This document shows positions 1-63,307 of a DNA stretch of 64,000 nt, piece after piece (position 1 is the first letter of the stretch; each line of letters starts with the position of its first letter). This DNA is from Marinihelvus fidelis (GTDB lineage: Bacteria > Pseudomonadota > Gammaproteobacteria > Xanthomonadales > SZUA-36). The position numbers and the translations under genes were made by a program. The stretch covers positions 1 to 64,000 of the forward strand of contig NZ_VYXP01000010.1 in assembly GCF_008725655.1 (NCBI RefSeq), written 5' to 3'. A model generated the notes under the pieces. The model did not search any database. It worked only from the letters and a program-made list of their open reading frames with translations, and was not told the origin of the DNA.

Positions 1-76
1 TGCTCCCGGGAACTTCGGCGGCATGGATGCCGCCGATGAGCGCCCATGGACGGGTTCACAGCGATTCCCGGGAGCA
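1..76. repeat. Structured intergenic repeat, copy E1 (52-nt core, 12-bp outer stem)
   Basis: Positions 1-12 and 65-76 are perfect inverted arms (TGCTCCCGGGAA and its complement). They enclose a 52-nt core at 13-64. The core holds a perfect 8-bp hairpin (GGCGGCAT/ATGCCGCC) and a second short hairpin with CCC/GGG arms around ATGGAC. The same core occurs at 4061-4112 and, reversed, at 46368-46419, each time with a different outer stem. It lies just downstream of the leftward ferredoxin gene, so it could act as a 3' end element. The left boundary coincides with the window edge, so the outer stem may be longer. Confidence 0.8.
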
Positions 77-2510: not shown

Positions 2511-2562
2511 CCTGTAACGAGTATTCTGTCACGCGTCACCTGTCACCCGTAACCACTCACCG
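2507..2562 (+). repeat. Heptad repeat array A1 (8 units, mixed orientation)
   Basis: Eight consecutive 7-bp units (GTAACCT, GTAACGA, GTATTCT, GTCACGC, GTCACCT, GTCACCC, GTAACCA, CTCACCG). The first unit provides the TAA stop of bcp. The first half resembles the stop-bearing strand and the second half its complement. It fills most of the bcp-phoH gap. Confidence 0.8.
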
Positions 2563-3975: not shown

Positions 3976-4019
3976 CGGCGACGCGTGACGGGTGACGCGT
4001 GACGCGTGACGCGTGACGA
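3971..4019 (+). repeat. Heptad repeat array A2 (about 7 units, GTGACGC orientation)
   Basis: Units TTTGACG, GCGACGC, GTGACGG, three GTGACGC and GTGACGA. The first degenerate unit holds the TGA stop of the PIN-PhoH gene. The array faces A3 (4160-4194) across the E2 hairpin element. Confidence 0.88.
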
Positions 4020-4030
4020 AAAGCGTTCCA

Positions 4031-4142
4031 CCCTGGGGAGGGGCTTACTCCTTTCCGGACCTTCGGCGGCATGGATGCCGCCGATGAGCGCTACATGGAC
4101 GTACTCGAGCGAGTCCGGAAAGGAGTAAGCCCCTCCCCAGGG
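4031..4142. repeat. Structured intergenic repeat, copy E2 (52-nt core, perfect 30-bp outer stem)
   Basis: Arms 4031-4060 and 4113-4142 are perfect 30-base complements. They enclose a 52-nt core (4061-4112) whose first 30 bases are identical to copy E1. The second inner hairpin has TAC/GTA arms around ATGGAC, where E1 has CCC/GGG. It lies between two convergent genes and between the inverted arrays A2 and A3, so a bidirectional terminator role is plausible, although there is no T-tract. Confidence 0.9.
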
Positions 4143-4159
4143 CATGCGACACCGCCCCG

Positions 4160-4194
4160 CCGTCACGCGTTACGCGTTACGCGTCACCCGTCAC
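4160..4194 (-). repeat. Heptad repeat array A3 (5 units)
   Basis: Units CCGTCAC, GCGTTAC, GCGTTAC, GCGTCAC, CCGTCAC on the + strand; the stop-bearing GTGACGC strand is the minus strand. The array encodes the last residues (VTGDA) and the TAA stop of the AI-2E-type permease gene. Confidence 0.9.
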
Positions 4195-22031: not shown

Positions 22032-22523
22032 ATGACATTTTCACTGAAACGCACCACCCTGGCATCCACCGCGGCCGCCCTGGCGCTGATGGCCGGCACG
22101 GCCGTCGCCGGACCCGGCCACGACCATGACCGCGGCCACCGCGGCGCACCGCCGGACATGTCCGCGATGATGCTGCGCCACCTGGGCCACCAGGTGAAGT
22201 CCCTGGACCTGGACGATTCCCAGGAAGCCGCCATCAAGGCGATCTTCGAGTCCAGCAAGGCCGACCTGGAAGCCAACAAGCTGGCCGCGAAAGATAACCG
22301 CAAGGCCCTGCACGAGCTGCTGATGGCCGATACCCTGGATGAAGGCGCCCTGGCCACGCTGGCCCGCGCCGAAGGTGAACTGGTGGCCGAGCGCATCGTC
22401 ATCGCCGCCACCACCGCCAGCCAGGTGAAGGCCAACCTGAGCAGCGACCAGCCCGCCGAACTGGAAGCCAACATCGACGAGCGCCGCGAGCGCTTCGCCT
22501 CCCGGGCGACGCGTAACGAGTGA
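22032..22523 (+). CDS. CpxP/Spy-like periplasmic protein
   Basis: Exported helical protein of 163 residues with a signal peptide ending AGTAVAG, a histidine-rich stretch (GPGHDHDRGHRG) that might bind metal, and a degenerate LTxxQ-type motif (LDLDDSQEAAIKAI). The CpxP/Spy group are periplasmic chaperones or Cpx feedback inhibitors. Divergence from cpxRA with a CpxR box between them mirrors the E. coli cpxP-cpxRA locus. The last residues (ATRNE) and the TGA stop are encoded by heptad array A4, so the original C-terminus has been altered. Confidence 0.85.
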   Translation: MTFSLKRTTLASTAAALALMAGTAVAGPGHDHDRGHRGAPPDMSAMMLRHLGHQVKSLDLDDSQEAAIKAIFESSKADLEANKLAAKDNRKALHELLMADTLDEGALATLARAEGELVAERIVIAATTASQVKANLSSDQPAELEANIDERRERFASRATRNE

Positions 22524-22561
22524 CGCGTAACGGGTGACGCGTGACGCGTGACGCGTGACGC
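22506..22561 (+). repeat. Heptad repeat array A4 (8 units)
   Basis: Units GCGACGC, GTAACGA, GTGACGC, GTAACGG and four GTGACGC. The third unit provides the TGA stop of the cpxP/spy-like gene, two units into the array. It faces A5 across a 97-base spacer. Confidence 0.92.
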
Positions 22562-22658: not shown

Positions 22659-22707
22659 GCGTTACGCGTCACGCGTCACGCGTAACCTGTGAAGCGTCAC
22701 GCGTAAC
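22659..22707 (-). repeat. Heptad repeat array A5 (7 units)
   Basis: Units GCGTTAC, GCGTCAC, GCGTCAC, GCGTAAC, CTGTGAA, GCGTCAC, GCGTAAC on the + strand, opposite in sense to A4. It directly abuts the terminator at 22709-22742. The spacer between A4 and A5 (22562-22658) shows no gene. Confidence 0.9.
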
Positions 22708-33087: not shown

Positions 33088-33115
33088 GTGACGCGTGACG
33101 CGTTACGCGTTACGC
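33088..33115 (+). repeat. Heptad repeat array A6 (4 units)
   Basis: Units GTGACGC, GTGACGC, GTTACGC, GTTACGC immediately after the terminator. It faces A7 across a 97-base spacer (33116-33212) in which no gene is visible. It is not attached to a gene in its own orientation. Confidence 0.88.
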
Positions 33116-33212: not shown

Positions 33213-33240
33213 GCGTCACGCGTCACGCGTAACCCGTCAC
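33213..33240 (-). repeat. Heptad repeat array A7 (4 units)
   Basis: Units GCGTCAC, GCGTCAC, GCGTAAC, CCGTCAC on the + strand. The last unit, read on the minus strand as GTGACGG, supplies the TGA stop of phoU. Confidence 0.9.
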
Positions 33241-46324: not shown

Positions 46325-46337
46325 CCGTGTCGCGTGA

Positions 46338-46449
46338 CCGGGGTGGCCTGTTGGGCTATCGCCGGACACGCTGTGGATACATCCTTGTACGCTTATCGGC
46401 GCCATCCATGGCGCCGATAGTCCGGCGCTAGCCCAACAGGCCACCCTGG
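46338..46449 (-). repeat. Structured intergenic repeat, copy E3 (52-nt core, 30-bp outer stem)
   Basis: Arms 46338-46367 and 46420-46449 pair over 30 bases with two mismatches. The 52-nt core (46368-46419), read on the minus strand, aligns over its whole length with the E1 and E2 cores. The first inner hairpin is GGCGCCAT/ATGGCGCC where E1 and E2 have GGCGGCAT/ATGCCGCC, and the second is TACA/TGTA; both keep pairing through compensatory changes. Confidence 0.9.
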
Positions 46450-46470
46450 CCATCGGAACGGAGACGTGTT

Positions 46471-46680
46471 GTGAAGGCAGGTACGAAGGGGTTTCTGGGT
46501 GGGTTGGTGGTTGGTGCGGGGGTGATGCTTGTGGGGGCCGTGTATTCGGTCAACACCGTCAGCCGCATGCACTACACGCTGGACGCGGTGAGCGCCAACG
46601 CGGGTTATTTTGCCAGCGTCCAGGCCGGCATCGACCACGCACGTGAACAACGCACCAAACGCCAGGCCGCGGCCCGGTGA
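46471..46680 (+). CDS. Small hypothetical membrane protein
   Basis: Protein of 69 residues with a GTG start (GGAG nine bases upstream), one hydrophobic helix (FLGGLVVGAGVMLVGAVYSV) and a basic tail. No family recognised. The TGA stop falls in the first unit of heptad array A8. It lies in the same direction as the two PspB-like genes but beyond the E3 hairpin. Confidence 0.6.
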   Translation: MKAGTKGFLGGLVVGAGVMLVGAVYSVNTVSRMHYTLDAVSANAGYFASVQAGIDHAREQRTKRQAAAR

Positions 46681-46725
46681 CGCGTGACGCGTGACACGTG
46701 ACACGTGACACGTGACACGTGACAC
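46677..46725 (+). repeat. Heptad repeat array A8 (7 units)
   Basis: Two GTGACGC units followed by five GTGACAC units. The first provides the stop of the 46471 gene. The run of identical GTGACAC variants suggests recent tandem expansion. The remaining spacer to 46857 shows no gene. Confidence 0.92.
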
Positions 46726-60365: not shown

Positions 60366-60413
60366 TTTAGTCACGCGTCACGGGTGACAGGTAACGCGTG
60401 ACGCGTGACTAAA
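60366..60413 (+). repeat. Heptad repeat array A9 forming a 17-bp hairpin in the parC leader
   Basis: A short array with both orientations (GTCACGC GTCAC and GTAACGC GTGACGC GTGAC) folds into a perfect 17-bp stem: 60366-60382 pairs with 60397-60413, leaving a 14-nt loop. It sits between the lipoprotein stop and the parC start, 30 bases ahead of the ATG. It may attenuate or separate parC expression from the upstream genes. There is no T-tract. Confidence 0.85.
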
Positions 60414-60443: not shown

Positions 60444-62696
60444 ATGACCGAACTGACACAGAGCTTTTCCGACCACGAAAAGGTGCCGCTGCGCGAGTAC
60501 GCCGAGCGCGCCTACCTGGACTACTCCATGTACGTGGTGCTCGACCGCGCGCTGCCGAACATCGGCGACGGCCTGAAACCGGTGCAGCGAAGAATCGTCT
60601 ACGCCATGAGCGAACTGGGCCTGTCGGCGGCGTCCAAGCACAAGAAGTCCGCGAGAACCGTGGGTGACGTGCTGGGCAAGTTCCACCCGCACGGCGACTC
60701 GGCCTGCTACGAGGCCATGGTGCTGATGGCGCAGCCGTTCAGCTACCGCTATCCGCTGATCGACGGCCAGGGCAACTTCGGCTCGCCGGACGACCCCAAG
60801 TCGTTCGCCGCCATGCGCTACACGGAATCGCGCCTGGCGCCCTACGCCAAGGCGCTGCTGAGCGAACTCGGCATGGGCACGGTGGATTTCCAGCCCAATT
60901 TCGACGGCACGCTGAAGGAACCGGTGATCCTGCCCGCGCGCCTGCCCAATGTGCTGCTCAACGGCGGCACCGGCATCGCCGTCGGCATGGCCACGGACAT
61001 CCCGCCGCATAACCTGAACGAGGTGGTCACCGCCTGCATCCGCCTGCTCGACGAACCCAAGGCCACGGTCGAGCAGCTGTGCGAGCACGTGCAGGGCCCG
61101 GACTTCCCCACCGACGCAGAGATCATCACCCCGCGCGACGACCTGCTGAAGATCTACGAGACCGGCCACGGCTCGGTCAAGGCGCGCGCCGTGTACACGC
61201 GCGAGGACATCGACATCATCATCACCGCGCTGCCGCACCAGGTCTCGCCGGCCAAGGTGCTGGAGCAGATCGCCCAGCAGATGCGCGACAAGAAGCTGCC
61301 GATGGTCGAGGACCTGCGCGACGAGTCCGACCACGAAAACCCCACGCGACTGGTGATCACGCCGCGCTCCAACCGCGTCGACATCGAACAGCTGATGAAC
61401 CACCTGTTCGCGACCACGGACCTGGAACGCAACTACCGCGTCAACCTGAACATCATCGGCATCAACGGCAAGCCCCAGGTGCTGGACCTGCGCACGCTGC
61501 TGAAAGAATGGCTGCAGTTCCGCACCCAGACCGTCACCCGGCGCCTGGAATTCCGCCTGGACCAGGTCGTCGACCGCCTGCATATCCTCGAAGGCCTGCT
61601 GGTCGCCTACCTGAACATCGACGAGGTGATCCACATCATCCGTACCGAAGACGAGCCCAAGCCGGCGCTGATGGCCGCTTTCGGCCTGACCGCCACCCAG
61701 GCCGAGGCCATCCTCGAACTGAAGCTGCGCAACCTGGCGAAGCTGGAGGAAATGAAGATCCGCGGCGAGCAGGAAGCGCTGGAGGAAGAACGCCAGTCAC
61801 TGGAACTGACCCTGGGCTCGAAGGCGCGCATGAAGACGCTGATCAAGAATGAGCTGACCGAGGACGCCGAAAAGTACGGCGACGAGCGACGTTCACCCAT
61901 CGTCGAGCGCGAGTCCGCCCAGGCCCTGCGCGAGGAAGACCTGATGTCATCCGAGCCGGTGACCGTCGTGCTGTCGAAGGCCGGCTGGGTCCGCGCCGCC
62001 AAGGGCCACGACATCGACGCCGAGGCACTCAGCTACAAGGCCGGCGACGAATACCTGGACGACGCCCGCGGCCGCAGCAACCAGCAGGCCGTGTTCCTGG
62101 ACTCGACCGGCCGCGCCTACGCGCTGGCCGCGCACACCCTGCCCTCGGCCCGCGGCCTGGGCGAACCGCTCACCAGCCGCTTCAACCTGGCCGACGGCGC
62201 CCGCTTCACCCACGCCCTGGCTGGCGACGCCGAGCAGAAAATCGTCCTCGCCAGCACCTTCGGCTACGGCTTCGTCACCGCCATGGAGAACCTGCACAGC
62301 CGCATGAAGGCCGGCAAGGCCATGCTCACCGTGCGCGACGGCGCCGAGCCGGTCCGCCCGGCCATCATCACCCCGGGCGCGGACACCATCGTCTGCGCCA
62401 CCAGCGACGGCTACCTGCTCGCCTTCCCCCTGGCCGACCTGCCCGAACTCGCCAAGGGCAAAGGCAACAAGATGATCGGCGTGCCTCCCAAGCGCCTGAA
62501 AGCCGGCGAAGAGCACATGGTCGGCATGGTCGTCCTGGGCGAAGGCCAGGAAATCCTGGTCTGGGCCGGCAAACAGTACCTGCGCATGGCCGCGAAAGAC
62601 CTGGAGCACTACCGCGGCGACCGCGCCAAGCGCGGCCGCAAGCTGCCCAAAGGCTACCAGCGCGTCACCATGCTCGAGGTGACGGGTGACGGGTGA
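60444..62696 (+). CDS. parC: DNA topoisomerase IV subunit A
   Basis: Catalytic subunit of topoisomerase IV, 750 residues. The winged-helix domain has [11 protein letters not shown], the quinolone-determining segment [14 protein letters not shown] with the sensitive-type residues S86 and E90, and the catalytic tyrosine Y126 in AMRYTESRL. The C-terminal part is the beta-pinwheel. I start at the ATG 60444; an in-frame GTG at 60405 lies inside the heptad array and is less likely. The C-terminus VTGDG and TGA stop are encoded by heptad array A10. Confidence 0.96.
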
Positions 62697-62734
62697 CGGG
62701 TGACGCGTGACGCGTGACGCGTGACGCGTGACGG
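62679..62734 (+). repeat. Heptad repeat array A10 (8 units)
   Basis: Units GTGACGG three times, GTGACGC four times, GTGACGG once. It encodes the last five residues and the stop of parC; the TGA used is in the third unit. It faces A11 across the S23 gene. Confidence 0.94.
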
Positions 62735-63122: not shown

Positions 63123-63223
63123 CACAACGCCCCAAACGCAGTACCGGCACTCATCCTCCCAAACAACCCCACCCCACCGATACAGCAAATCCCCCAAATC
63201 CCCGTAGTCATTCTCCCCGTCTC

Positions 63224-63307
63224 GCGTCACGCGTCACGCGTCACCTGTCACGCGTCACGCGTCACGCGTCACGCGTCACGCGTCACGCGTCACGCGTCAC
63301 GCGTCAC
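63224..63307 (-). repeat. Heptad repeat array A11 (12 units, longest in the window)
   Basis: Twelve units in exact register: three GCGTCAC, one CTGTCAC and eight GCGTCAC on the + strand. Read on the minus strand it encodes the last residues VTRDA and the TGA stop of the glutamate-synthase-like gene. Eleven identical units imply recent expansion or active homogenisation. Confidence 0.96.

What the first reader, a model, noticed from the sequence alone, without database searches (positions are those of the whole stretch)
4031..4142. A 52-nt structured core with copy-specific outer stems and compensatory changes
Copies at 1-76, 4031-4142 and 46338-46449 share a core of exactly 52 nt and the same ground plan: outer stem, hairpin 1 (GGCGGCAT/ATGCCGCC or GGCGCCAT/ATGGCGCC), hairpin 2 (CCC/GGG, TAC/GTA or TACA/TGTA arms). 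The paired changes in both hairpins preserve base pairing, while the outer stems (12 to 30 bp) are unrelated in sequence. This is the signature of selection on structure, with the outer stem renewed or chosen at each site. I recall similar loop sequences in other gammaproteobacteria but cannot verify it. It could be a family of terminators, a mobile hairpin, or a structured RNA.
Basis: seen in the sequence. Interest (0 to 1): 0.8.

Follow-up and report, generated by a model that had tools for sequence, protein, structure and literature searches.

The report
Scattered twin-hairpin RNA, likely CsrA decoy
The window carries three of about forty copies of a folded RNA-like element, related to the known but little-studied TwoAYGGAY motif, whose two loops look like docking sites for the regulatory protein CsrA and whose long outer stem keeps its pairing while its letters change freely.

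Summary
Three copies lie in the window and 43 matches in the genome. Each has a core of about 52 nt with two hairpins, closed by an outer stem of about 29 bp; the 12-bp stem of copy 1 is cut by a contig end. In 35 distinct own-genome copies both loops read C-ANGGAN-G, the CsrA/RsmA recognition form. Window copy 3 matches the published consensus RUACARGGAUGU exactly. Outer stems are mostly unrelated between loci but stay paired. On the GGA strand G·T mismatches outnumber A·C 168 to 14, and 37 to 2 where that strand is antisense to both neighbours, so selection acts on that single strand.

It is not unknown in kind. Rfam's TwoAYGGAY scores window 4026-4142 at 42.7 bits (cut-off 43) and 46329-46458 at 34.5. 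A 2014 paper already proposed TwoAYGGAY as a CsrA-binding sRNA. Added here: the scale (73 of 370 sampled genomes of the class), dispersal, the co-varying free stem, divergent pairs, and turnover. Best explanation: a dispersed two-site CsrA-binding decoy RNA. Transcription, CsrA binding and titration are inferred, not shown.

The parts
1..76 (+). Copy 1, whole element as far as the contig reaches: stem arms 1-12 and 65-76 (truncated by the contig start), core 13-64
15..36 (+). Copy 1 hairpin 1, loop ATGGAT at 23-28
   Evidence: read from sequence
43..54 (+). Copy 1 hairpin 2 (CCC/GGG), loop ATGGAC at 46-51
   Evidence: read from sequence
4031..4142 (+). Copy 2, whole element
   Evidence: Rfam TwoAYGGAY 42.7 bits over 4026-4142
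4031..4060 (+). Copy 2 outer stem, 5' arm (30 bp, perfect)
4063..4084 (+). Copy 2 hairpin 1, loop ATGGAT at 4071-4076
4085..4091 (+). Copy 2 junction 2/3 with conserved AGCG
4092..4103 (+). Copy 2 hairpin 2 (TAC/GTA), loop ATGGAC at 4095-4100; supported by the alignment, though the lowest-energy fold of this copy alone pairs this stretch otherwise
4104..4112 (+). Copy 2 junction 3/1 with conserved AGCG
4113..4142 (+). Copy 2 outer stem, 3' arm
46335..46452 (-). Copy 3, whole element (stem arms 46335-46367 and 46420-46452, core 46368-46419)
   Evidence: Rfam TwoAYGGAY 34.5 bits
46396..46417 (-). Copy 3 hairpin 1 (GGCGCC arms), loop ATGGAT at 46404-46409
   Evidence: read from sequence
46378..46389 (-). 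Copy 3 hairpin 2 (TAC/GTA), loop AAGGAT at 46381-46386; exact RUACARGGAUGU match on the - strand at 46379-46390

Best explanation
Each copy is a structured RNA element, a gammaproteobacterial relative of the TwoAYGGAY motif. An outer helix of about 29 bp, nearly free in sequence, holds two hairpins whose hexaloops (C-ANGGAN-G) form a two-site clamp for the CsrA/RsmA dimer. The helix is a rigid, stable handle; its length and pairing matter, its letters hardly do. With about 40 copies in the genome the RNAs together would act as a dispersed decoy (sponge) for CsrA. SHOWN here: the structure, its covariation, the loop constraint, and strand-specific selection that does not depend on the orientation of neighbouring genes. 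INFERRED: that the strand is transcribed, that CsrA binds it, and that titration is the purpose.
For: Covariation. Strand-specific tolerance of G.T over A.C, 168:14 in 208 copies, 62:3 in the set found by core pattern alone, 37:2 where the GGA strand is antisense to both neighbours; internal control A.A against T.T is 12:10. Loops: 35 of 35 distinct own-genome model hits have ANGGA in both loops, closed by C-G, while the second base takes all four letters, although all 12 training copies had T there in H1. In the broad set 64 of 65 H1 and 63 of 65 H2 loops contain GGA (the H1 miss and one H2 miss come from an antisense match, one H2 reads CATGGGCG). The H2 closing C-G pair is kept in 65 of 65. 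Exact RUACARGGAUGU in 8 of 35 own copies; that consensus is quoted in PMC7937890 (passages). csrA is in G000 and in 50 of 61 genomes searched. CsrA sites were found independently in TwoAYGGAY by PMC4333381 (passages).
Against: No expression or binding data. Promoter-like scores 5' of the element are only slightly above the other flank (mean 6.39 against 6.15, n = 248; 5 against 2 strong sites), and no 5' motif at a fixed distance was found. Half of the tandem-context copies are antisense to both neighbours (35 of 70), so read-through alone cannot make the RNA there. Only two sites per RNA, where CsrB-type RNAs have many. In 5 of 28 readable haplotypes of one site another repeat sits inside H1. 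csrA was not found in 6 of the 33 carriers (G007, G016, G024, G025, G032, G036; 65-90% complete), and it is also present in genomes without the element, so its presence does not discriminate. Single-stranded DNA would give the same strand asymmetry.
Confidence: 0.5

Rival explanations
1. It is a single-stranded-DNA hairpin element moved by a strand-specific recombinase or HUH transposase. The GGA strand is the recombinogenic strand, and the loops are protein contacts in DNA.
For: High copy number and patchy presence (G057 67 copies, G048 of the same genus 0). Copies sharing stem and flanks at different loci. Core subtype changes at the same site. Close pairs are divergent in 18 of 19 cases among the 22 loci examined. 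Strand asymmetry fits ssDNA as well as RNA, and G.G and G.A mismatches are also tolerated.
Against: 28 of 37 own copies lie beside a copy of the 83%-identical sister genome, so most sites are old. No shared end sequence is kept in the outer arms. No match in plasmids or phages. The loop pattern A-N-GGA-N is the RNA-binding CsrA pattern. No transposase was searched for.
Confidence: 0.2
2. It is a bidirectional terminator or 3'-end barrier placed between convergent genes.
For: In the named loci 29 of 67 copies with both neighbours called lie between convergent genes, against 50 of 317 background gaps, and 4 of 67 against 81 of 317 between divergent genes (the background loci were chosen for carrying copies). 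Very stable stem.
Against: No T-run after the stem on the GGA strand (T 7-28% at positions 29-45). A bidirectional stem should not favour G.T over A.C on one strand. It does not explain the loops. In 35 of 152 copies the element is sense between tandem genes and in 35 antisense.
Confidence: 0.12
3. The stem is kept paired without selection, by arm-to-arm template switching during replication; the core alone is functional or merely inherited.
For: Between copies at the same site changes are mostly double, not single (56 against 9), and sometimes clustered.
Against: Template switching has no reason to favour G.T over A.C on one strand, or to stop sharply near 28-31 bp, and it does not explain loop and junction conservation. 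It may still add to the turnover.
Confidence: 0.1

Closest known systems
TwoAYGGAY RNA (Rfam RF01731, clan CL00106; Weinberg et al. 2010)
   Same: Two hairpins with GGA loops inside an outer stem, the same order of parts, end-to-end model match to window 4026-4142. A CsrA-binding role was proposed for it in PMC4333381 (passages).
   Different: Both copies scored stay below Rfam's cut-off (42.7 and 34.5 against 43). Hairpin 2 has 3-4 bp here against a long helix in the Rfam consensus. Loops are ANGGAN, wider than AYGGAY. Here there are tens of dispersed copies and an outer stem that keeps pairing but not sequence.
CsrB/CsrC, RsmX/Y/Z sRNAs and Alteromonas Aln1a-c (PMC5864184, passages)
   Same: A(N)GGA motifs in hairpin loops; proposed sequestration of CsrA.
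   Different: Those are a few dedicated sRNA genes; Aln1a-c come from one 404-bp region. Here two sites per element and about 40 scattered loci.
REP/BIME/REPIN palindromes (from recall)
   Same: Dispersed intergenic hairpins, often in inverted pairs.
   Different: REPs conserve the palindrome itself; here the outer palindrome differs at almost every site, while the core and its loops are conserved.

Membership tests
TwoAYGGAY (RF01731) | Score at or above Rfam's gathering cut-off (43 bits) | tested here: not met
   42.7 bits for 4026-4142, 34.5 for 46329-46458; no match at gathering in the whole window; none in 10 other loci at E up to 1 or in a 171-base stretch of L346.
TwoAYGGAY (RF01731) | Two hairpins whose terminal loops are AYGGAY | tested here: inconclusive
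   Both loops fit in copies 1 and 2; in copy 3 H2 is AAGGAT. Across 35 own copies the second base takes all four letters.
TwoAYGGAY (RF01731) | Outer stem enclosing both hairpins in this order | tested here: met
   End-to-end model match 1-168 of 168.
CsrA-sequestering sRNA | ANGGA motifs in hairpin loops | tested here: met
   35 of 35 distinct own copies in both loops.
CsrA-sequestering sRNA | Independent transcript | tested here: inconclusive
   Weak promoter-like excess only; no RNA data.
CsrA-sequestering sRNA | Binds CsrA | not testable with these tools
   Needs an experiment.
Intrinsic terminator | T-run after the hairpin | tested here: not met
   Flank composition and reading of 68 flanks.
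REP/REPIN | Shared palindrome sequence between copies | tested here: not met
   Outer arms differ between almost all copies.
REP/REPIN | Cognate RAYT transposase | not tested
   No search made.

The most novel reading that the evidence does not exclude
Many gammaproteobacteria carry a genome-wide network of tens of independently expressed mini CsrA clamps, each with a sequence-free 29-bp handle. Together they buffer CsrA and tie its free level to transcription across the genome, supplementing or taking over the job of CsrB/RsmZ.
Probability: 0.28. Interest if true: 0.78.

Novelty: new variant of a known kind. Interest (0 to 1): 0.55.

Why it matters
TwoAYGGAY has been in print since 2010 and was called 'relatively unexplored' in a recent preprint (PMC11661157, passages). 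These data tie it to a large, dispersed gammaproteobacterial set, also in culturable genera such as Marinobacter, with a sharp test (CsrA binding to the two loops), and give evolutionary evidence that one strand is the functional form. If CsrA is titrated by dozens of scattered elements, models of CsrA control based on a few dedicated sRNAs are incomplete. The outer helix is also a clean natural case of selection on pairing with little selection on sequence.

Tried and rejected
Rfam at gathering gave nothing; the relation appeared only when a 201-base stretch was scanned by E-value. The same kind of scan of 10 whole loci gave no TwoAYGGAY match, nor did a 171-base stretch around one distant copy, L346. 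The many miRNA-family matches there I take as effects of a long perfect stem.

Intrinsic terminator rejected (no T-run). Hammerhead ribozyme considered because of GAUGA in the J2/3 strand; rejected because distant copies do not keep it (hammerhead core from recall). Retron, integron attC and ToxI were considered from recall only and not tested.

The empty site at 4031 in G001-G006 (read by eye) did not show whether the arms came with the element: the intergenic sequences there are too different. The second comparison mostly showed decay of old pairs: fusions of left and right halves, and excisions leaving arm remnants.

Promoter search: EM motif search found a conserved 3' tail in 67 Marinobacter-type copies (log-likelihood 190 against 55-58 in shuffles). 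The 5' flank also exceeded its shuffles (89 against 58-65), but its sites are scattered and not at one distance.

Literature: ten searches. Those on palindromes, dispersed repeats and literal core sequences listed no paper that I could match to this dispersed element; I judged from listings, except PMC5864184 and PMC7937890, of which I saw passages. The name searches found the TwoAYGGAY papers. Supplements could not be read, so I cannot say whether Weinberg et al. noted copy number or stem behaviour.

Full report
WHAT IS THERE. The window holds three copies of one element: 1-76 and 4031-4142 on the + strand, and 46335-46452 on the - strand. A full-sensitivity scan with covariance model R2 finds these three (82.4, 92.5 and 84.3 bits) and nothing else above 19 bits. 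The plan is: outer stem, a few bases, hairpin 1 (H1) of about 8 bp, a junction with AGCG, hairpin 2 (H2) of 3-4 bp, a second junction with AGCG, outer stem. The 12-bp stem of copy 1 is a truncation, because base 1 of the window is base 1 of contig C10. In sister genome G001 the same place carries a divergent pair with longer stems, and the ends of G000 contigs C8 and C10 both match the flanks of that pair. Of the 43 matches in G000, 13 lie within 120 bases of a contig end (my count, contig lengths), so these hairpins seem to break the assembly.

HOW MANY AND WHERE. A first pattern search gave 12 copies in G000, with 0 for the control pattern. Model R1, built from those 12, gives 43 matches at E up to 1, 41 of them below 1e-5. 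Among 61 relatives including the own genome, 33 have matches at E up to 0.001. In samples, the element is in 87 of 398 genomes of the order (R1), 73 of 370 of the class (R2) and 37 of 397 of the phylum sample (R2). All positives listed in that last sample are of the own class or order, but the listing does not show how many genomes outside the class were drawn. From 115 of these (four of the sister genome left out) 94 distinct copies with stems were read, largely from Marinobacter, with some from Parahaliea and unnamed gammaproteobacteria; stretches without a long stem look like chance hits. One Marinobacter element gave no match in plasmids or phages; the two viral-contig hits lack the stem.

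PAIRING. In the 12-copy alignment 98.6% of cells pair, with 56 cells changed on both sides (shuffled mean 17, 0 of 500 as high). In a broad set of 65 distinct sequences 483 cells changed on both sides against 115. That alignment was fitted to the structure, so it leans that way; the slid controls give 67-128. Over 259 copies stem length has median 29 and quartiles 27-30. Mismatches jump at position 28-31. In 20 copies compared at the same site in G000 and G001, 298 outer pairs are unchanged, 56 changed on both sides and still pair, 9 changed on one side and still pair, 6 are broken, 6 were already unpaired in G000 and 163 positions could not be aligned in register. Several of these 20 differ in core subtype, so they look like replacements and not simple descent. 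Of 37 own copies, 28 lie beside a G001 copy (in a few cases two share one), one site (4031) is empty in G001, and 8 gave no match; G001 was fetched only around its copies and the window's site, so those 8 are undecided.

WHICH STRAND. With a score that treats every non-Watson-Crick pair alike, the first 27 pairs of 208 copies contain 168 G.T and 14 A.C mismatches read on the GGA strand (binomial p about 1e-34 if independent, which shared ancestry makes too small). The set found by core pattern alone gives 62:3; the other sets were found with a model that counts G.U as a pair in the inner 13 bp. The excess holds where the GGA strand is antisense to both neighbours (37:2); between divergent genes it is 5:2 in 11 copies. 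In 259 copies G.G exceeds C.C 40:1 and G.A exceeds C.T 46:11, while A.A against T.T, which should not differ, is 12:10. In an earlier subset of 15 G001 copies the ratio was only 7:6; in 44 G001 copies it is 35:6. So selection sees this strand as a single strand, whatever the neighbouring genes do. That means an RNA with its own source, or single-stranded DNA; the data do not decide between these.

LOOPS. In the 35 distinct own-genome model hits every H1 loop is ANGGAT or ANGGAA and every H2 loop ANGGAY, closed by C-G. The second base takes all four letters, though the training copies all had T there in H1. My later copy finder requires GGA in both loops, so counts made with it are no evidence for GGA. 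PMC7937890 (passages) gives the CsrA/RsmA preference as RUACARGGAUGU in short hairpin loops; 8 of 35 own copies contain it exactly, among them window copy 3. csrA is in G000 and in 50 of 61 genomes; it was not found in 6 of the 33 carriers, all 65-90% complete, one of them (G016) with 24 copies.

PLACE. Of 152 copies with both neighbours called by a home-made gene finder, 71 are between convergent genes, 35 sense and 35 antisense between tandem genes, and 11 between divergent genes. In the named loci alone it is 29 convergent, 34 tandem and 4 divergent of 67, against 50, 186 and 81 of 317 background gaps of at least 60 bp in loci that were chosen for carrying copies. In 22 loci picked for close neighbours, 18 of 19 neighbouring copies point away from each other, 20-207 bp apart; same-strand neighbours exist elsewhere (L225, L337, L340). 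At one convergent site in genus g26, 30 loci were examined; in two, one flank could not be placed. The other 28 show different left and right elements, fusions of left and right halves, excisions, another repeat inside H1 in 5, and a different insert at H2 in one, L284 (read by eye). The copy finder misses elements with such inserts or with indels in the arms, so its element column there is an undercount.

KNOWN OR NEW. Rfam's TwoAYGGAY matches window 4026-4142 end to end at 42.7 bits (cut-off 43) and 46329-46458 at 34.5. Over 13 chosen genomes the same family matches 9 at E up to 1 and 4 above the cut-off, and none of 14 control genomes. In G000 it gives 8 matches; two coincide with R1 matches, and two others that I read are a longer subtype. 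Weinberg et al. 2010 (PMC2864571; table row seen) list TwoAYGGAY as a probable RNA, probably not cis-regulatory. PMC4333381 (2014; passages seen) finds two CsrA-site matches in it, proposes a CsrA-sequestering sRNA and notes an external stem 'not well conserved'. So the idea of a CsrA-binding RNA is theirs. By Rfam's own cut-off these copies are not members, hence 'variant'.

READING. The most likely mechanism is a two-site clamp for the CsrA dimer on a long inert handle, present in tens of copies and acting as a dispersed decoy. Structure, strand and loops are shown; transcription, binding and titration are inferred.

Noticed in passing
window 2528-2553, 3978-4017, 4162-4194, 22506-22559, 22661-22707, 33088-33113, 33215-33240, 46677-46723, 60370-60409, 62679-62732, 63219-63307: Arrays of a 7-bp repeat (GTGACGC and variants) just after stop codons, reading in the direction of the gene, often as inverted arms on both sides of a gap. 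The sister genome has similar arrays with another 7-bp unit.
   Followed up: partly
L353 1501-1607 (G000:C12:5118-5224) and L095 8101-8178 (G000:C10:70100-70177): A longer subtype with an extra internal-loop module between outer and inner stem; scores above Rfam's TwoAYGGAY cut-off (46.6 and 45 bits).
   Followed up: partly
L280, L289, L290, L293, L298 (intergenic site); L044 2722-2842; L051 1290-1410: Other structured repeats inserted inside the loop region of H1 or H2.
   Followed up: partly
L337 2415-3647 (G975:C1): Six copies on one strand, five of them spaced about 227 bases apart.
   Followed up: no
Marinobacter loci, e.g. L116, L134, L155, L175: Conserved 3' tail after the stem, CCCCnAAn...CAGGCTagGG, starting mostly 1-6 bases after the stem end.
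   Followed up: partly
L211 5374-5582: A REP-like palindrome (GTAGGTCGGATTAGCC...GGCGTAATCCGAC) between two divergent elements in Marinobacter lipolyticus.
   Followed up: no
G000 contig ends (C2, C4, C5, C6, C7, C8, C10, C11, C13, C14): 13 of 43 element matches lie within 120 bases of a contig end, so these hairpins seem to stop assembly.
   Followed up: partly
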